A stretch of DNA of 64,000 bases. It comes from a virus. Below, piece by piece: positions 12,741 to 26,913 of this stretch; the first letter of the stretch is position 1, and each line of letters starts with the position of its first letter. Both the position numbers and the translations under genes were made by a program. The stretch lies in IMG/VR virus record IMGVR_UViG_3300037189_026207, positions 16,742 through 80,741 of that record. The stretch is one strand, 5' to 3'. The notes beneath the pieces are model-generated. The model saw only the letters and a program-made list of their open reading frames with translations, was not told the DNA's origin and did not search any database.

Positions 12741-13688
12741 ATGCTACTACTCACTGGCGCGGCAGGATTTATCGGATCAAACATCCTGCGCGGATTAAAC
12801 GCGCGTGGGTATACCGACATTATTTGCGTCGACGATCTGACCGACGGCACTAAATGCGTAAATCTTAGCGGCACAAAATTCTACGACTACTACGACTGCG
12901 AAGAATTATTCTTTCAGCGTCTTTCCGTTAAATTGCAAGGCATTATTCACATGGGCGCCACGTCGAGCACGGGCGCCGCGGATGGCCGTGAAATTATTGC
13001 TAACAACTTTAGCTACACAAAAAAAATCTTCAGATTAGCGGAAAGCAATAACTGCCCAGTCGTGTACGCCAGCTCGGCCAGCGTGTACGGCAACGGCGCA
13101 AGAGGATTCCGCGAAGAGGAGGAGTGCGAGCAGCCTAACTCGCCCTACTCCTGCTCCAAGTGGATGATTGACCAGTACGTGCATCGGCACAGTATTCCCG
13201 CCGTGGGCTTACGGTACTTCAATGTGTACGGTCCTGGCGAAGAGCATAAGCGAGAAAATGCTAGTTTTGCGCACAAACTATTTAAAGCAGCGCTACAACA
13301 AAGTGCTGTTGAGATATTTGAGCATCCAACACAAACTATCAAGCGCGATTTTATTTATGTAAAAGACGCGGTTGATATTACGTTGTTTTGCTTATTTAGC
13401 AAATTTGTGCCCGGTGTTTACAACGTTGGTACGGGTATTCCGCAAAGCTTCGATGACATGCTTGACGCCGGCACAGCTGCGTTCTGGGCTAGTCGTGTTG
13501 GCGGAACAGTTCCTAGCGGAGTAAACCGACGCCCGCTGCCGGAAGAGTGGCTGAGCCGGTATCAAGTCTATACGTGCGCAGACATCACAAATTTAAGAAA
13601 ATTAGGATGGACTAACCCCATGACTACGCTGCAAGACGGCATGAAGCAGCACTGGGAGGCAATGACAGATGGAACCAGGGCGACATAA
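12741..13688 (+). CDS. hldD: ADP-L-glycero-D-manno-heptose 6-epimerase-like (HldD)
   Basis: This encodes 315 residues, the normal length for HldD, a short-chain dehydrogenase fold that epimerises ADP-heptose at C6 for LPS core synthesis. Seen directly: the nucleotide-binding GAAGFIGS (6-13); the family-typical DDLTDGTKCVNL; SSASVYG; the catalytic pair in YSCSK (about 135-139); RYFNVYGPGEEHK; and KRDFIYVKDAVD. The order and wording match HldD far better than generic epimerases. HldE, the enzyme two steps earlier, is encoded at 24433. The start immediately follows the previous stop. It may alter host LPS or feed phage glycosylation; the target is inferred. Confidence 0.9.
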   Translation: MLLLTGAAGFIGSNILRGLNARGYTDIICVDDLTDGTKCVNLSGTKFYDYYDCEELFFQRLSVKLQGIIHMGATSSTGAADGREIIANNFSYTKKIFRLAESNNCPVVYASSASVYGNGARGFREEEECEQPNSPYSCSKWMIDQYVHRHSIPAVGLRYFNVYGPGEEHKRENASFAHKLFKAALQQSAVEIFEHPTQTIKRDFIYVKDAVDITLFCLFSKFVPGVYNVGTGIPQSFDDMLDAGTAAFWASRVGGTVPSGVNRRPLPEEWLSRYQVYTCADITNLRKLGWTNPMTTLQDGMKQHWEAMTDGTRAT

Positions 13689-13908
13689 CGCTCAATTCCC
13701 TGTAGACGAAAGCGAATACTTATTTGCCCAAGCGGAACCAGAAATTGAATTTAATGAGCCGCTTGAGGCTAAAGTTATCTCAGACGAATTAGGCGCAACA
13801 TTCAGCTGCCGAGACTGCGGAGAAATTCAAGAAATTGACTATTGCCTGGGCTGCGATTGCTTTGTGTGCGAGCGTTGCGCTATGAGTTATTTAGCGGACC
13901 GCGCCTAA
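13669..13908 (+). CDS. Small zinc-finger-like protein
   Basis: This encodes 79 residues, overlapping the end of the epimerase gene by 20 bases. The C-terminal half has cysteine pairs CRDCGE, CLGCDCF and CERC, consistent with a two-zinc ribbon. The N-terminal half is acidic. Its TAA overlaps the next ATG (TAATG). Likely a nucleic-acid or protein adaptor; no family named. Confidence 0.6.
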   Translation: MEPGRHNAQFPVDESEYLFAQAEPEIEFNEPLEAKVISDELGATFSCRDCGEIQEIDYCLGCDCFVCERCAMSYLADRA

Positions 13909-14360
13909 TGCAAACGTTTCTGCCTTATCCAGACTATGAAGAATCAGCAAAATGCCTCGACTATCGACGGCTCGGCAAACAACGCGTGGAGTGCAAGCAA
14001 CTGCTGCTCGCGCTTGGCGTGACTGTTGGCGCGCACGTGCCTAAAAAGTCTGGCTGGAAAAATCACCCAGCCACAAAAATGTGGCGCGGGTACGAAATTG
14101 AGTTATGTCGATACGCCATTGTAATCTGCTGGGAATGGCGGAACAGAGGCTACAAAGACGAATTAGCGCGTCAATTTATATTTGCCGCAACCGTAAACGC
14201 AATGTCCACAGAATCGTGGATCGGTAAAAAACCGCCGTGGCTCGGAGACGATTTTCTACACAGCAGCCACCGCAGCAATTTATTACGCAAAGATCCAGAT
14301 CATTACGGGCAATTTGGCTGGGAAGAACCCGACAACCTGCCTTACGTTTGGCCGGTATAG
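13908..14360 (+). CDS. Pyrimidine-dimer DNA glycosylase-like protein (Pyr_excise/MSMEG_6728 family)
   Basis: This encodes 150 residues. The N-terminus MQTFLPYPDYEESAKCLD, then RRLGKQRVE, NHPATKMWRGYE (52-63) and CWEWRNRGYKDE match the MSMEG_6728-type branch of PF03013, distantly related to T4 endonuclease V. That enzyme cuts UV-induced pyrimidine dimers. Phage copies protect packaged or replicating DNA in sunlit water. The start is fixed by the TAATG junction at 13908. Activity is inferred from family membership. Confidence 0.8.
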   Translation: MQTFLPYPDYEESAKCLDYRRLGKQRVECKQLLLALGVTVGAHVPKKSGWKNHPATKMWRGYEIELCRYAIVICWEWRNRGYKDELARQFIFAATVNAMSTESWIGKKPPWLGDDFLHSSHRSNLLRKDPDHYGQFGWEEPDNLPYVWPV

Positions 14361-18008: not shown

Positions 18009-18307
18009 TTATAACGCAGATTTTAGACGATATGCGCCGGCACTCATCTGCTGAAAGTGTCATGCGCTCGCAGCTTTCGGCTAAAGTTGCAGAGCTAGAA
18101 AAAGAAGTGAATTCGTGGGAACATGAGTCGCTTAAAGATGACCAACGCATTCGTACAATGAAGTACACTATCGCATTGTTTGCTAGCGTGTTAAAACAAA
18201 TCGCTAATCCGCCCAACGCCGCGGGAGAATACGCACTCACCCGTGCAGATTGCGAAAACTTAGCGCGCGCAGTATTAGAGCAGGAGGCCAGTCATGAAGA
18301 AAAGTAG
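17993..18307 (+). CDS. Hypothetical coiled-coil protein
   Basis: This encodes 104 residues starting 16 bases inside the previous gene. It is helical throughout with a central VAELEKEVNSWEHE heptad region. GGAGG near its 3' end is the ribosome site for the overlapping SEC-C gene. No known family. Confidence 0.55.
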   Translation: MDDKLIITQILDDMRRHSSAESVMRSQLSAKVAELEKEVNSWEHESLKDDQRIRTMKYTIALFASVLKQIANPPNAAGEYALTRADCENLARAVLEQEASHEEK

Positions 18308-18755
18308 ATTGCACAAGTACATCGGTCGAAATGAAAAATGTCCGTGCGGCAGCAGCATTAAATTTAAAAGGTGCCACGGCCGCAATTCTTCGGACCGTCG
18401 TGTCGTGACGCGCAAAGAATATATCGACGCGGGCGAAATCCCGATTCGCTGGGTAATCGCGAACGAGAAAGCTACGGCGTTCTTTTCCGACATCAAAAAC
18501 CGCATTCTTGTATTCGCCGATCGGCAGGTCGCGGTTGACGTTACCCGCCTTGATATTTTTGCGTCTGCCGGCGAGGGAGAAATTAACTTAGCTGGCGTGG
18601 GGCCGAAAAAGTGGCAACATTTGCAAGAGACGTTGCCTTTTATCGAAGTCGGGTCGCTTGAGATGGCCAAGGCGCTTTTACAGGAGCGCATTGAGCAAAA
18701 AACTGAGGAACTAGGCAGTGCAGAAGAAGAAAAAGACAGTAACCCCGAGCAGTAA
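18294..18755 (+). CDS. SEC-C motif zinc-binding protein
   Basis: This encodes 153 residues. Residues 10-30 are a clear SEC-C motif: GRNEKCPCGSSIKFKRCHG, the zinc-binding tail first seen on SecA and shared by many small proteins. Here it is N-terminal. The rest is alpha/beta with an acidic Glu-rich end. The motif usually mediates protein or ribosome contacts; the phage role is unknown. The start is set by GGAGG upstream and overlap with the preceding gene. Confidence 0.75.
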   Translation: MKKSRLHKYIGRNEKCPCGSSIKFKRCHGRNSSDRRVVTRKEYIDAGEIPIRWVIANEKATAFFSDIKNRILVFADRQVAVDVTRLDIFASAGEGEINLAGVGPKKWQHLQETLPFIEVGSLEMAKALLQERIEQKTEELGSAEEEKDSNPEQ

Positions 18756-21172: not shown

Positions 21173-21212
21173 GCAGGGGGCGGAGGCTTTCTCCGCCCCC
21201 TGCTTTATTTAT
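21173..21212 (+). terminator. Strong intrinsic terminator
   Basis: A 13-bp perfect stem (21173-21185 with 21191-21203), GCAGGGGGCGGAG and its complement, has a five-base loop GCTTT and is followed by TTTATTTAT. The next gene begins only ten bases later, so its transcription must come from read-through or an unseen promoter. Confidence 0.85.
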
Positions 21213-21221
21213 AGGTGTACT

Positions 21222-22184
21222 TTGTTTGAAAACTTTGGTCCGCAAAAATGGTGGATCGCAAAACTTCCCAAATTTGCTACGCAGAACTTCTCTTACAAAT
21301 ACGTAATTCAACCTGCGGCTAATTACAAAAAACGTAAATTTGCATTTAATACATATCGTGTTGTTCTTGCACATTTAAAGCGCGCTTATCGTTATTGGTT
21401 CTACCGATGCCGTGAGCTTGTGTGCAATGACCTCTGGCTCCCGACAGCGCCCGATAACAACGCGACAGTTATTCGCCGGGCCGTAGCGCATTGCTTGTAT
21501 TGCACTCCTAGCCACGTGGTGCTGCATAAAAACAAAAAACCGATACCTGTAAATCCGTGCAGCCAATATCAAATTTGTCCGTTTTGCGCCGCTCGTGTTG
21601 CGGAAGATCTATATCGAAGACTAATGCGGGCGTTGAAAACGCTAAAAACATCTGGCGCGACGGCGTGGGCCACATACCGTTGCGAGCGATATGAAGTTGC
21701 GGCGAAAGGATTTGCTGATACGGGCCTGAGCGCCGCAGAATTTCAGGCGCACGTCAAAAAGCTACGCGAAGTTCTCGCCGATGAGCGCGTCCGATATCAA
21801 AAAATTTCAAAAGAGGTTGGAACGCAAACACTGGGCGCGCTTTGGGCTGTAGTGCCGTATCCGGCTGACACGGGCTGGGTAGTTGAAATTAGGCAATTTT
21901 ATCTGACTTATCCGCAGTCGCGCCGGCCGGCGAACCGTAAGCGTAATTCCTCTGAGTTAACCTCGCAGTCTATTAATATTCGAAATACAAAGCAGGTGAT
22001 AAACTTACTTGGTAACTTTGTTACTTATCCCGCTAGTCTGCTTACTGCGCATGCGGAGTTGACTGCAGTTGTTTTACACGCCCGGCGAGGACTGAGACTT
22101 TTAAATGGAACCGGACAACTCTACCGAAAAGGCCGAGAAGCCAAAAAAGAAGAAACAATACGAACGGCAGCGCACGTCCCCTGA
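21222..22184 (+). CDS. Cys-motif protein, possibly replication-initiator-like
   Basis: This encodes 320 residues from TTG 21222, four bases after AGGTG. The N-terminal half is very basic and aromatic. The block NPCSQYQICPFCAARVAEDL (about residues 107-126) has the C-x5-CPFC arrangement found near the N-terminus of some plasmid and phage replication initiators. No clear HUH motif or catalytic tyrosine context is visible, so the call is tentative. It overlaps the next gene by 80 bases in another frame. Codon-level coding character fades in the overlap, so the exact C-terminus deserves a check. Confidence 0.5.
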   Translation: MFENFGPQKWWIAKLPKFATQNFSYKYVIQPAANYKKRKFAFNTYRVVLAHLKRAYRYWFYRCRELVCNDLWLPTAPDNNATVIRRAVAHCLYCTPSHVVLHKNKKPIPVNPCSQYQICPFCAARVAEDLYRRLMRALKTLKTSGATAWATYRCERYEVAAKGFADTGLSAAEFQAHVKKLREVLADERVRYQKISKEVGTQTLGALWAVVPYPADTGWVVEIRQFYLTYPQSRRPANRKRNSSELTSQSINIRNTKQVINLLGNFVTYPASLLTAHAELTAVVLHARRGLRLLNGTGQLYRKGREAKKEETIRTAAHVP

Positions 22185-23385
22185 GTTTGAAGCGCTAGTG
22201 GGGCGGCTTCGTTACGTCGGCGAGTTTCTATTTAGCGGTAATTTGAGCGCGTACGCAGCAGCAGTCGGCATGACCGAGGAGTGGCTGACATACGTGTTGG
22301 ATTCTGCCAATCGCGTTCGGCTCACGACTTTTATGCAGTTTGTCACGAGTGGACTGGTGTCTGCGGAGTGGTTATTTTGTGGCACAGGACCAATGTTAAT
22401 GTCTAATGTTACAGTTGATTCAATTAGTGGTAATGCATCTTTGCAAAATATTAATAGTCGTTATGCGGTTTTAAATACGGCTGCCTTAGCTCCGCTTAAG
22501 CTGCCAGAGATCCCCGAACATAAACCTTCAACTGTGGAACACAACAATGACACGACACGACAAATTATTTCTGTTGCTCGTCAAGTATTTATTTCATCAA
22601 AAAACGCTAAACCAATAATTTTGTTCGTCAATGCGGCGCCTTTAATGGCCAACATCGCGCCAATAATTGAAGAGCTGCTACGCAAGAAGTATTTGACTGG
22701 AGTTGCTCTGTCGCTTTCTGCTGCTGAACTGGACTATCAACACTCAGGGCAGACAGATCCTGGCACATTTAATGATATCGTGATTCGCGGCGGCCAATCT
22801 GGTCTTGGCTTGGGTGAGGCGTTGGGCGCTTTTATCGCGAACCGCACTACGAACGACAAGAGTGTGTTAGCGGCTGCGTATTCTGTTGGCGTACCTGTGA
22901 CGGTACACGGCAGCGTAGGTGAGTCTCCCATGCATTTCTGCGCAGCCAAAAACGGCGCAGAGCTTGGGGCGGCCTACGGCGCAACTAGTTATGTTGATTC
23001 GCTCGTGTTTGCTGAGCAGGTCCGCAACATGTCCGGCGACGCCATGAGCCTGTTTTTAAATTTGGGTTCCGTTGCGCCTGGCTTGCCGCTGCTTTCCTCT
23101 GCGATGGCTGCTGCGCAAGAAGGACTTGGTTTGACATTTAATCGATTAAAAATCTCTCGATTTACGACGAGAAAAGTGACTAGCAATTTGGACGCGTGTG
23201 TATGCGCCCCATATGACTATTCGTTAGCAAATCTTCTGAGCGCATGCGACGCAATCTTTGAGGGAGGATTCGATGTCTACGTCAATCAAAATACCGGAGA
23301 GCAGTTTGCCTCCTTCGGAATGCTTAAGCAGTGTGCTGAAAACGTTCGAGAACGCGCAGAAGAGCAACGTAAGCGCAAGAGATAA
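22105..23385 (+). CDS. HTH (XRE/CI-like) fused to a deoxyhypusine-synthase-like (GSU2086-type) domain
   Basis: This encodes 426 residues. Residues 40-95 look like a degenerate phage-repressor HTH: LSAYAAAVGMTEEWLTYVLD, then VSAEWLFCGTGPM, the characteristic end of XRE/CI-type domains. Residues about 150-410 follow the deoxyhypusine-synthase-like family (GSU2086 type): IILFVNAAPLMANIAPIIEE, GQSGLGLGEALGAFI, LAAAYSVGVPVTVHGSVGE, AELGAAYGATSYVDSLVFAEQ, FLNLGSVAPGLPLL, then RFTTRKV. The family has an NAD-binding Rossmann-like fold. The metabolic role outside archaea and eukaryotes is unknown. It overlaps its neighbours by 80 and 113 bases. A ligand-sensing regulator is the natural inference. Confidence 0.7.
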   Translation: MEPDNSTEKAEKPKKKKQYERQRTSPEFEALVGRLRYVGEFLFSGNLSAYAAAVGMTEEWLTYVLDSANRVRLTTFMQFVTSGLVSAEWLFCGTGPMLMSNVTVDSISGNASLQNINSRYAVLNTAALAPLKLPEIPEHKPSTVEHNNDTTRQIISVARQVFISSKNAKPIILFVNAAPLMANIAPIIEELLRKKYLTGVALSLSAAELDYQHSGQTDPGTFNDIVIRGGQSGLGLGEALGAFIANRTTNDKSVLAAAYSVGVPVTVHGSVGESPMHFCAAKNGAELGAAYGATSYVDSLVFAEQVRNMSGDAMSLFLNLGSVAPGLPLLSSAMAAAQEGLGLTFNRLKISRFTTRKVTSNLDACVCAPYDYSLANLLSACDAIFEGGFDVYVNQNTGEQFASFGMLKQCAENVRERAEEQRKRKR

Positions 23386-24430
23386 ATTTTTATTGGCCGC
23401 CGCCGCGGTACATTTGGCGCAGCGCTTATTCTCAGGTACCGGCAGTACGAATACAGCATTTCGCGAAGCGGCCGCAGTTGAGATGGCGGCTACGCTGAGC
23501 AAACTGGCTGAGTTGCCGTGGAACAGGGTAAATTTTCCGGTAGCTAGTGTGCTGACGTCGCAGACCTACGCCGACATTTTTGCAGAGCACAGCGTAAAAG
23601 ATTCTGACCGCCCGCAGGTCTTGCTCGAGAGCCTGTTTACATTTCTAAACGTGCTCGAGATGGACCCAGATTTAGGGTCAGAATCTGTTCTGCGACAAAT
23701 TTTGCAAAGTGATGCTGTAACGAGAACTGTTGCGGCTACGCCCATTGAATTGAATTATCGCGCAAACGTATTAAAGATTTTTTCGCCGGCCAACGTAGCG
23801 GCAATTGATCTTGAGCCGTTACAGATTGTTGTGTACCGCGGCGAGCTTTTAGGCGGCGGATTCGGGCCTGAGCTCTGGGGCCTGGCGTACAACCACGCGG
23901 ACGATATGACGTACGTCCTGCTCGAAACGGGCGAGTTCTTAAAATTGCCGTCGACTAATCTGTGTCTCGCAACGACGAAAGATTATGCGTCAAGCGAGGT
24001 ACCGCCGTATTTGCTGGCGTGCGGTAAATTGTTCTTTCCGCACTTCCTGCCAAAGCTGCGAGTCAATCCGGCGACGATCGCAAAATTAGATAAAAACTTC
24101 GGTTCGTTTACGGAGCCTGTCTCACTAGTTTATGCAGACGTTTCTTCGCTAGAAAATTGTGAATCTGTACTTGACAGAGCTCGCTGGACGAGCGATCATG
24201 CGGACTCGAAGGGTGCGGTTAAAACGTTTGACGTAAATAGTTCTTGGCAGATTGTGGTAAACGCGCAGCAAGCCGCTATTAGGCCATACGTTAGCAGTGT
24301 TCTCGTGAATGCCGGAACTGGGTTGGTGATCATGCGCCTCGACACTCCGCGAGAGTTTTCAGCGTACGGTATTTATTTTTATCCGGCTGGTCCGGCGTCC
24401 GCCGCTTTAATTTCTTGCCCCAATCTGTAA
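23273..24430 (+). CDS. Hypothetical protein, partner of the HTH/DHS-like gene
   Basis: This encodes 385 residues. AGGGAGG upstream selects ATG 23273, 113 bases inside the previous gene. The N-terminal 120 residues are helical and Ala-rich. The rest is mixed alpha/beta with IVVYRGELLGGGFGPELWGLAYN and an immunoglobulin- or SH3-like strand pattern. No family is recognised. The long overlap and two-base gap to HldE imply one translationally linked cassette. Confidence 0.6.
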   Translation: MSTSIKIPESSLPPSECLSSVLKTFENAQKSNVSARDKFLLAAAAVHLAQRLFSGTGSTNTAFREAAAVEMAATLSKLAELPWNRVNFPVASVLTSQTYADIFAEHSVKDSDRPQVLLESLFTFLNVLEMDPDLGSESVLRQILQSDAVTRTVAATPIELNYRANVLKIFSPANVAAIDLEPLQIVVYRGELLGGGFGPELWGLAYNHADDMTYVLLETGEFLKLPSTNLCLATTKDYASSEVPPYLLACGKLFFPHFLPKLRVNPATIAKLDKNFGSFTEPVSLVYADVSSLENCESVLDRARWTSDHADSKGAVKTFDVNSSWQIVVNAQQAAIRPYVSSVLVNAGTGLVIMRLDTPREFSAYGIYFYPAGPASAALISCPNL

Positions 24431-24432
24431 AA

Positions 24433-25908
24433 ATGACTGCCGCCACACGTCGCCCGAGAATAGTTGTTATTGGTGATTTACTCGCCGACGTGTGGTGGCA
24501 GGCCGGGCCATCTAGCCGCAACATAGAGCACGCGGCTATGGCGTTGGTTAGCGCGCCCGGCAGCAAAAAAATTACTGCTGGCGGCGTAGGCATTGTAGCA
24601 GCGGCTTTAGGGCGTGCCGGCTTTCAAGACGTTTCTTTGTTTTCTATTATCGGGCCGCAACCCGAAGCTAGTTTAGCGTTGCGAACATTAACGCGAATCG
24701 GCGTGAATACTGAACACGTAATTCGCGATGCTGATTTCGTGACGCCAATTAAAACAAGATATATCAATGCAAATGGGCATATCCTGCTTCGGCACGATAT
24801 TGAAACAACGCCGGCGGGTCATTCTGACTTTAGTAGCGCTCTAGCCTATTTAATAAAAGATGCTGATTTTGTAGTAGTGTCAGACTATGCAAAAGGTTGT
24901 ATAACACCGCACGACCGGTTGCGTATTGTGCAGCTGTGCCAGCGCTATTCAAAACTGTTACTTGTTGACACAAAACCCAGCGTTATTGACGCGTATCGCT
25001 GCGCAAACATATTTAAATTAAATAGAGCAGAAACAGAGGCAGTAGCCGGCGCACCAACAGGCTCGTTGCTAGATACAGCGTATTTGGCTGCGTGTAAATT
25101 AAATTGTGATGCGCTAATCGCAACAGACGGCGACAACGGCGTGGTTTGGGCGTCGGCAATGCATAAAAGAAGTACGGCGGCGCCAAAAAAGCATGTCGCC
25201 GGAAATTGCGTGGGCGCTGGTGATATATTTTTCGCCGGACTGATTCTTGGATTGGCGCAGCGCGACGCGCTTGGCGGGCCTGTATCTGCTGATGATTTAG
25301 ATAAGGCAGTATTTTATGGGCTTGTTGCGGCCGGCCAGCGAGTGCGAACAAATGGGTTTAAACCGTTCTCGCCCGCGGCGATTCAACAAGAAGTTTTTCG
25401 ACATCAGACGCGATTTAATCCAGCTCGCAAGATTTGCTCGTACCGCGAATTTTGCCGACTTGCAGCGCAGCTCCGTGAATCAGGCAGACGGATCGTGTTT
25501 ACGAATGGCTGTTTTGATTTAATGCACGAGGGCCATGTCAGCACTTTGATGTGGTCGCGCAAGCAGGGTGACGCATTATTTGTTGCGGTGGATTCAGATC
25601 AAAATGTGCGGCGGCTAAAAGGCGCCACACGCCCTGTGCACGACGAAACGACTCGCGCTACAAATGTCGCGGCGCTTGAGTGCGTGGATGCTGTATGCGT
25701 CTTTGACGAAACAGCCGCGGATGAAAACATGTCTTTACGCGACCTAATCCGCGCGGTACAGCCAGCTTTTTTGACTAAGGGGCCAGACTACGCAGATAAA
25801 AAAATTGTTGGACAGGAGTTTGCCGATCAGGTTTTACTTTGCCCGCTTGTTCCGGGTAAAAGCACAACGGCATTTGTTAATAAAATGACTGGATCCTTTA
25901 ACTCGTGA
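24433..25908 (+). CDS. hldE: Bifunctional heptose kinase/adenylyltransferase-like (HldE)
   Basis: This encodes 491 residues, close to bacterial HldE. The N-terminal ribokinase-type domain (about 1-320) has RIVVIGDLLADVWW, a GG-containing substrate loop, VVVSDYAKGCI, KLNRAETEAV and the catalytic-base motif NCVGAGDIFFAG (about 260). The C-terminal cytidylyltransferase-fold domain has FTNGCFDLMHEGHV (about 357-370) and KGPDYADKKIVG (about 449). HldE phosphorylates D-glycero-D-manno-heptose-7-phosphate and later adenylylates the 1-phosphate. HldD at 12741 completes ADP-heptose; GmhA and GmhB are not seen and may come from the host. ATG 24433 lacks a strong ribosome site, so coupling to the previous gene is likely. 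Confidence 0.92.
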   Translation: MTAATRRPRIVVIGDLLADVWWQAGPSSRNIEHAAMALVSAPGSKKITAGGVGIVAAALGRAGFQDVSLFSIIGPQPEASLALRTLTRIGVNTEHVIRDADFVTPIKTRYINANGHILLRHDIETTPAGHSDFSSALAYLIKDADFVVVSDYAKGCITPHDRLRIVQLCQRYSKLLLVDTKPSVIDAYRCANIFKLNRAETEAVAGAPTGSLLDTAYLAACKLNCDALIATDGDNGVVWASAMHKRSTAAPKKHVAGNCVGAGDIFFAGLILGLAQRDALGGPVSADDLDKAVFYGLVAAGQRVRTNGFKPFSPAAIQQEVFRHQTRFNPARKICSYREFCRLAAQLRESGRRIVFTNGCFDLMHEGHVSTLMWSRKQGDALFVAVDSDQNVRRLKGATRPVHDETTRATNVAALECVDAVCVFDETAADENMSLRDLIRAVQPAFLTKGPDYADKKIVGQEFADQVLLCPLVPGKSTTAFVNKMTGSFNS

Positions 25909-26562: not shown

Positions 26563-26588
26563 TTTGACGCCAAAGACAAATAACTTTT

Positions 26589-26662
26589 GGGCCTCTAGCT
26601 CAATTGGTTAGAGCATCGGACTTTTAATCCGTTGGTTCTGGGTTCGAGTCCCAGGGGGCCCA
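26589..26662 (+). tRNA. tRNA-Lys (anticodon TTT)
   Basis: Seven acceptor pairs (26589-26595 with 26655-26661, one T-G), D-arm GCTC/GAGC, anticodon loop CTTTTAA and T-arm CTGGG-TTCGAGT-CCCAG are all present. The outermost anticodon-stem pair is a T-T mismatch. No CCA is encoded. Confidence 0.95.
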
Positions 26663-26842
26663 TCACCCCGGGCATGCTGATGTCCAGAGCGCCATGGCTC
26701 AAGCCGCTGCCTTCATTGCCGGCGGCTCAGCACCCTAGTCATGAGTGGGTTTGTAACCATGAAGCCGGCGGTGTTTAAGCTAAGACGGGATTCCTCACGG
26801 ACGCGCGCCGGAAGTCGTAAACGCAAGGAAGAAAGCGCAGGT
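26663..26842. other. Inter-tRNA spacer, structured, no gene
   Basis: These 180 bases between the two tRNA genes contain no coding frame with a ribosome site and no standard T-arm. They can fold: AGCCGC near 26703 pairs with GCGGCT near 26723, and GGTT-TGT-AACC near 26749 is another hairpin. It may be a degenerate tRNA or a structured RNA. Confidence 0.4.
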
Positions 26843-26913
26843 TGCCCGATGGTGTAACGGTAGCACAAGAGATTTTGGTTCTCTTTGTCTAGGTTCAAAT
26901 CCTAGTCGGGCAT
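26843..26913 (+). tRNA. tRNA-Gln (anticodon TTG)
   Basis: TGCCCGA (26843-26849) pairs fully with TCGGGCA (26906-26912). The anticodon arm is AGAGA-TTTTGGT-TCTCT and the T-arm CTAGG-TTCAAAT-CCTAG. The D-arm is short. No CCA is encoded. Confidence 0.95.

What the first reader, a model, noticed from the sequence alone, without database searches (positions are those of the whole stretch)
22105..23385. HTH domain fused to a deoxyhypusine-synthase-like domain in a phage
Residues 40-95 end in VSAEWLFCGTGPM, typical of CI/XRE repressors. Residues about 150-410 follow the GSU2086/deoxyhypusine-synthase-like pattern (GQSGLGLGEALGAF, GVPVTVHGSVGE, ELGAAYGATSY, NLGSVAPGLPLL). I know neither a phage copy of this family nor this fusion. 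A DNA-binding domain joined to an NAD-binding fold suggests a metabolite-sensing switch.
Basis: partly seen in the sequence, partly recalled or inferred. Interest (0 to 1): 0.85.

Follow-up and report, generated by a model that had tools for sequence, protein, structure and literature searches.

The report
Phage repressor-like protein with deoxyhypusine-synthase-like domain
A lineage of uncultured phages with genomes of about 200 kb carries, in every record where the right region was sequenced, one protein that joins a repressor-type DNA-binding head to a body resembling an NAD-using enzyme; it is most likely a new kind of phage gene regulator whose signal is unknown.

Summary
The 426-aa ORF at 22105-23385 has an XRE/CI-type helix-turn-helix (residues about 26-97) and a deoxyhypusine-synthase (DHS)/GSU2086-like Rossmann domain (about 148-388), supported by profile search, AlphaFold2 plus Foldseek, and profile-profile comparison. 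The fusion is not a one-off: it is full length in 17 of 23 related phage records (the other six end before the locus) and in six more found independently. In all 24 records it is the middle gene of an invariant cassette A-B-C whose outer genes are unknown. No fusion appeared among matches listed for 591 genomes of two bacterial phyla, and no homolog in 50,697 deposited phage records. Stand-alone GSU2086 copies do occur in other phages (L005-L007). The phage family has lost most invariant GSU2086 residues but gained its own, so it is a homolog, not a member, and probably not the same enzyme. Best reading: a DNA-binding regulator with a repurposed Rossmann domain for oligomerisation and/or ligand sensing, comparable in layout to Rex. 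DNA binding, operator and ligand are untested. The neighbouring heptose gene HldE is variable (3 of 18) and does not explain the fusion.

The parts
22105..23385 (+). Gene B: HTH-Rossmann fusion protein, 426 aa
   Evidence: ORF; full-length orthologs in 23 further phage records
22180..22395 (+). XRE/CI-type helix-turn-helix, residues about 26-97
   Evidence: profile hit to 4ich E=3.2e-5 and weak CI/434 hits; five helices in the model; CI/XRE fold matches; invariant R34, Y37, F43, W89, L90, G93, G95
22546..23268 (+). DHS/GSU2086-like Rossmann domain, residues about 148-388
   Evidence: NF052581 E=1.4e-20; Foldseek to DHS E=1.3e-6; hhalign 99.8% to GSU2086 proteins
21222..22184 (+). Gene A: 320 aa, four invariant cysteines (C94, C113, C119, C122), unknown family; overlaps gene B by 80 bases
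   Evidence: conserved directly upstream of gene B in all relatives; alignment A2; confident model without significant PDB match
23273..24430 (+). Gene C: 385 aa, unknown family; overlaps gene B by 113 bases (a TTG start at 23258 is also possible)
   Evidence: conserved directly downstream of gene B in all relatives; alignment A3
21173..21203 (+). Strong GC-rich hairpin followed by a T-rich tail, terminator-like, just before gene A
   Evidence: -31.6 kcal/mol, z=-5.9; listed as terminator-like; no comparable hairpin seen at this place in relatives

Best explanation
A phage-encoded one-component regulator. The N-terminal XRE/CI-type HTH binds operator DNA. The C-terminal DHS/GSU2086-like Rossmann domain stands in place of the usual repressor C-terminal domain, holds the protein as an oligomer (DHS is a homotetramer) and probably binds a small ligand that changes DNA affinity. 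It is co-expressed with genes A and C and probably controls that operon and/or other phage genes. Shown here: both domains, their conserved fusion, replacement of most GSU2086 invariant residues, and the invariant cassette. Inferred: DNA binding, oligomerisation, ligand, targets.
For: HTH by profile and fold. DHS-like fold. Fusion intact in 24 records at 22-37% identity to P0001 in most cases, so it is under selection as one protein. The parental invariants are largely lost while new invariants arose (F174, E238, E273, Y296, D298, C381), which fits a retooled non-parental function. The recognition-helix region varies while the HTH core is conserved. Invariant overlapping cassette implies co-expression. 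Precedent for the layout: Rex (PMC8376106).
Against: No DNA binding, operator or ligand shown. P0001's own HTH has little net positive charge (4 K/R, 5 D/E), though several orthologs are basic. No conserved palindrome upstream of the cassette was found by the limited look taken. Several pocket residues remain strictly conserved, which would also fit an enzyme.
Confidence: 0.5

Rival explanations
1. DNA-tethered enzyme: the Rossmann domain catalyses an NAD-dependent reaction (on a polyamine, amino acid or protein side chain, perhaps of gene A or C), and the HTH localises it to DNA or to its own operon.
For: G233, G235, E238, S253, P264, G272, H277, G292 and D298 are invariant and E273 is nearly so; the closest folds are NAD-dependent enzymes: DHS, ArgZ/AgrE, LOR/SDH.
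Against: Most residues invariant in GSU2086 proteins are lost, H112 survives in 4 of 18, and the C-terminal YR...N...R segment is gone; neither GSU2086 nor the phage family shows an evident counterpart of the DHS catalytic lysine (inference from the alignments).
Confidence: 0.15
2. Structural or replication nucleoprotein factor: A, B and C form a complex on DNA (for example at the replication origin or for genome organisation); the Rossmann domain is only a protein-protein interface.
For: Invariant A-B-C order in all 24 records; gene A has four invariant cysteines and a confident fold; the cassette lies upstream of SbcCD-, helicase- and polymerase-type genes.
Against: No replication family recognised in A or C; conserved glycine-rich and acidic/His residues in the Rossmann domain suggest a pocket.
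Confidence: 0.2
3. Heptose-pathway protein: like bacterial GSU2086, it serves or regulates ADP-heptose synthesis together with the neighbouring HldE.
For: GSU2085-2087 is hldE/GSU2086/gmhA with similar mutant scores (PMC5585712); a heptose gene lies near GSU2086 in 27 of 45 bacterial loci of at least 9 kb; HldE and a nucleotide-sugar epimerase are in this window.
Against: HldE matches clearly in only 2 of 23 related records, so 3 of 18 with the fusion, while the fusion is in all; it is missing from the roughly 200-kb records G005, G008, G019, G021 and G023; GSU2086 motifs are lost.
Confidence: 0.05

Closest known systems
GSU2086 family (NCBIfam NF052581), bacterial; stand-alone phage copies L005-L007
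   Same: Homologous Rossmann domain: hhalign 99.8%, NF052581 E=1.4e-20
   Different: No HTH in the stand-alone proteins; the phage family scores 74 of the required 250 bits and has lost most GSU2086 invariants
Deoxyhypusine synthase (and the DHS-like superfamily: SpeY, ArgZ/AgrE and LOR/SDH NAD-binding domains)
   Same: Best fold match in the PDB, E=1.3e-6
   Different: About 12% identity; sequence evidence weak; no evident catalytic lysine; HTH added
XRE/CI-type phage repressors
   Same: N-terminal HTH with the typical W-L-x-x-G-x-G end
   Different: C-terminal domain is a DHS-like Rossmann domain, not the S24/LexA-like peptidase-type domain
Rex redox-sensing repressors
   Same: Works-like analogy only: N-terminal DNA-binding domain plus C-terminal Rossmann dinucleotide-binding and dimerisation domain (PMC8376106)
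   Different: Rex has a winged HTH and another Rossmann family; Rex did not appear among the sequence or listed fold matches; ligand of the phage protein unknown

Membership tests
GSU2086 family (NF052581) | Score over the curated cut-off of 250 bits | tested here: not met
   74.1 bits; none of 17 orthologous records over the cut-off
GSU2086 family (NF052581) | Invariant motifs GxHxxK, HDxE, TSEDV..GxFGMxxE, GTDxxH, GSAVxxPExFxK, YRPxxN | tested here: not met
   only D, G-x-G, S, P, G, H and D positions retained
GSU2086 family (NF052581) | Homologous fold/domain | tested here: met
   hhalign probability 99.8%, E=2.4e-29
Deoxyhypusine synthase | DHS-like Rossmann fold | tested here: met
   Foldseek E=1.3e-6, probability 1.00 to 7cmc
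Deoxyhypusine synthase | Catalytic lysine (human Lys329) and His288 | tested here: inconclusive
   role of the residues from PMC7226451; the DHS C-terminal region could not be aligned with confidence to the phage family
Deoxyhypusine synthase | Enzymatic deoxyhypusine formation from spermidine and NAD | not testable with these tools
   needs biochemistry
XRE/CI-type HTH proteins | Five-helix HTH with XRE sequence signature | tested here: met
   4ich E=3.2e-5; Phage_CI_repr and HTH_3 weakly in 3 member hits; fold matches
CI/LexA repressors | C-terminal LexA/S24-like domain | tested here: not met
   C-terminal domain is DHS-like
Rex | Winged HTH plus Rex Rossmann domain | tested here: not met
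   HTH matches XRE/CI and Rossmann domain matches DHS, not Rex

The most novel reading that the evidence does not exclude
A phage master or operon regulator that reads the host's NAD(H) or polyamine state through a repurposed DHS-type pocket and uses it to set the infection programme, for example in response to NAD+-depleting defences.
Probability: 0.13. Interest if true: 0.8.

Novelty: new variant of a known kind. Interest (0 to 1): 0.55.

Why it matters
A virosphere survey by BLASTP reported no DHS or SpeY homologs in viruses (PMC9992855). Here profile methods show a DHS-superfamily domain as a conserved gene of a lineage of uncultured phages of about 200 kb, fused to a repressor-type HTH. 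If it is ligand-gated, it would be a phage regulator tied directly to metabolism. The invariant A-B-C cassette gives two further unknown families to test together with it.

Tried and rejected
Single-sequence searches gave little: no Pfam, PHROG or PDB match, no viral contig, no deposited phage. Heptose-cassette reading: attractive because of HldE next door and the Geobacter operon, rejected after the survey of relatives. GSU2086 or DHS activity: disfavoured by lost residues. The hairpin at 21173-21203 as a conserved operator: not supported, no comparable hairpin in relatives. Gene A as a Rep-type initiator: one Pfam Rep_1 hit at E=0.13 and no significant fold match. Long bacterial GSU2086 ORFs (L023, L030, L039, L054) looked like fusions, but their N-terminal parts are arginine-rich, low-complexity stretches that look like over-extended starts (read by eye). 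G055, an HTH hit in a 527-aa frame: the ORF was read and shows no DHS-like part. A back-translation search with the gene A alignment could not run. A GSU2086-like sequence written from memory was used only as bait; what it fetched was judged on its own sequence.

Full report
OBSERVATION. The ORF at 22105-23385 (+) encodes 426 aa. The window is bases 16742-80741 of an 80,741-base IMG/VR virus record. A terminase large subunit gene lies in the left flank, and ORFs that read as DNA polymerase I, helicase and SbcCD-type proteins lie in the window, so it is a phage. The only family hit of the single sequence is NCBIfam GSU2086_dom, E=1.4e-20, 74.1 bits against a cut-off of 250.

RELATIVES. Searching viral contigs or deposited phages with P0001 itself found nothing. 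Searching with the phage's DNA polymerase gave 23 related viral contigs, several of 194-205 kb. Seventeen carry a homolog of P0001, each an intact ORF of 384-473 aa that includes the N-terminal part. The six without it end 9-12,060 bases 5' of the polymerase, while in the others the gene starts 14,222-21,414 bases upstream, so they are best explained as truncated. A scan with the family alignment added six more records, all full length and in the same gene order. Some records are near-duplicates (L125/L126; L209/L210/L213). The gene therefore looks like a core gene of this lineage.

DOMAINS. N-terminal: the profile of 18 orthologs matches a solved transcriptional regulator, 4ich, at E=3.2e-5 over positions 45-93 and, weakly, CI repressor 2fjr and 434 repressor. 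AlphaFold2 gives five helices at residues 26-92. Foldseek against viral models lists CI/XRE proteins at probability 1.00, though with E-values of only 0.06-0.3. R34, Y37, F43 and the W89-L90-x-x-G93-x-G95 end are invariant. C-terminal: the best solved fold match is DHS from Pyrococcus horikoshii, E=1.3e-6, followed by ArgZ/AgrE, LOR/SDH and other DHS chains. Profile-profile comparison with GSU2086 proteins gives 99.8%.

IS IT AN ACTIVE GSU2086/DHS ENZYME? A joint alignment with 16 GSU2086 proteins shows which of their invariants are kept. Kept: D113 (17/18), G158, S178, P189, G197, H202, G213, D219. Lost: H81, K84, E115, the TSEDV...GMxxE insert, T198-D199, E246, K250, D271, R277, R285. H112, aligned tentatively to the DHS NAD-site residue Glu137, survives in 4 of 18. 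New family invariants appear: F174, E238, E273 (17/18), Y296, C381, G387. This looks like replacement rather than decay: the domain is under selection, but probably not for the parental chemistry. Residue roles in DHS are from PMC7226451 and PMC10042821; mapping to DHS is tentative at this divergence.

CONTEXT. In all 17 polymerase-linked relatives and the six later ones, the gene lies between the same two genes, with overlapping or abutting ends: gene A (window 21222-22184, four invariant cysteines) and gene C (23273-24430). Neither has a recognisable family. Gene A folds confidently (pLDDT 83, pTM 0.84) without a significant PDB match. HldE lies beside the cassette only here and in G020 and G016. 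So although the bacterial GSU2086 family is linked to heptose genes (GSU2085-2087, PMC5585712; 27 of 45 bacterial loci), the phage protein is not.

IS THE FUSION KNOWN ELSEWHERE? In 294 and 297 genomes drawn from the phyla of L052 (a Fimbriiglobus MAG) and L047 (a Desulfobacterales MAG), 147 and 177 matched the profile. Every listed match to the DHS-like part begins at model position 94 or later; the HTH-only matches are separate, and the one in a long frame has no DHS-like part. Limits: at most six candidates per genome were scored, and the match lists were cut. Stand-alone GSU2086 copies do occur in phages: L005/L006 (contigs of 201 and 183 kb) and L007 (beside portal- and head-type genes, read by eye). 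A published BLASTP survey found no DHS or SpeY homologs in viruses (PMC9992855). No paper describing this fusion was found in the library.

MECHANISM. The most economical reading is a one-component regulator: DNA-binding head, Rossmann body for oligomerisation and probably for a ligand, co-expressed with A and C. Rex shows that an N-terminal HTH plus a C-terminal Rossmann domain can read NAD(H) (PMC8376106), but that is an analogy. Whether it binds DNA, at which sites, and which ligand if any are open. P0001's own HTH carries little net positive charge, which is a caution.

VERDICT. It is novel as a conserved domain architecture, a new variant of the HTH-plus-sensor kind.

Noticed in passing
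L008-L087 (bacterial loci): Bacterial GSU2086 genes often lie beside gmhA: 23 of 45 loci of at least 9 kb, and some heptose gene in 27 of 45. The family probably acts at an unassigned step of heptose synthesis.
   Followed up: partly
window 24415-25908 and 12741-13688: HldE-like bifunctional protein (28% identical to E. coli HldE) and a nucleotide-sugar epimerase: a partial heptose set in the phage; no GmhA or GmhB match in the window or left flank.
   Followed up: partly
window 21222-22184 and 23273-24430: Genes A and C are two conserved protein families without any recognisable relative, always flanking gene B.
   Followed up: partly
L005 9719-10711 and 10904-12529: A large phage carries a stand-alone GSU2086 gene with intact motifs, followed by a gene that reads like a TROVE/vWA protein (by eye only).
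   Followed up: no
L007 452-1366: A stand-alone GSU2086-like gene directly before portal- and head-type genes in a 17-kb phage contig.
   Followed up: no
window 18294-18755: A protein with an N-terminal SEC-C-like cysteine motif (by eye), conserved upstream of the cassette in 15 of 17 relatives and directly overlapping or abutting gene A in several.
   Followed up: no
L117 (G016): The family member scoring best against GSU2086_dom (E=2.5e-27); possibly closest to the ancestral domain.
   Followed up: no
window 21173-21203: Very stable GC-rich hairpin with T-rich tail just before gene A, not seen in relatives.
   Followed up: partly
window 26588-26664 and 26843-26913: Phage tRNA-Lys(ttt) and tRNA-Gln(ttg) genes.
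   Followed up: no
window 13842-14360: Pyrimidine dimer DNA glycosylase (Pyr_excise, E=2e-20).
   Followed up: no
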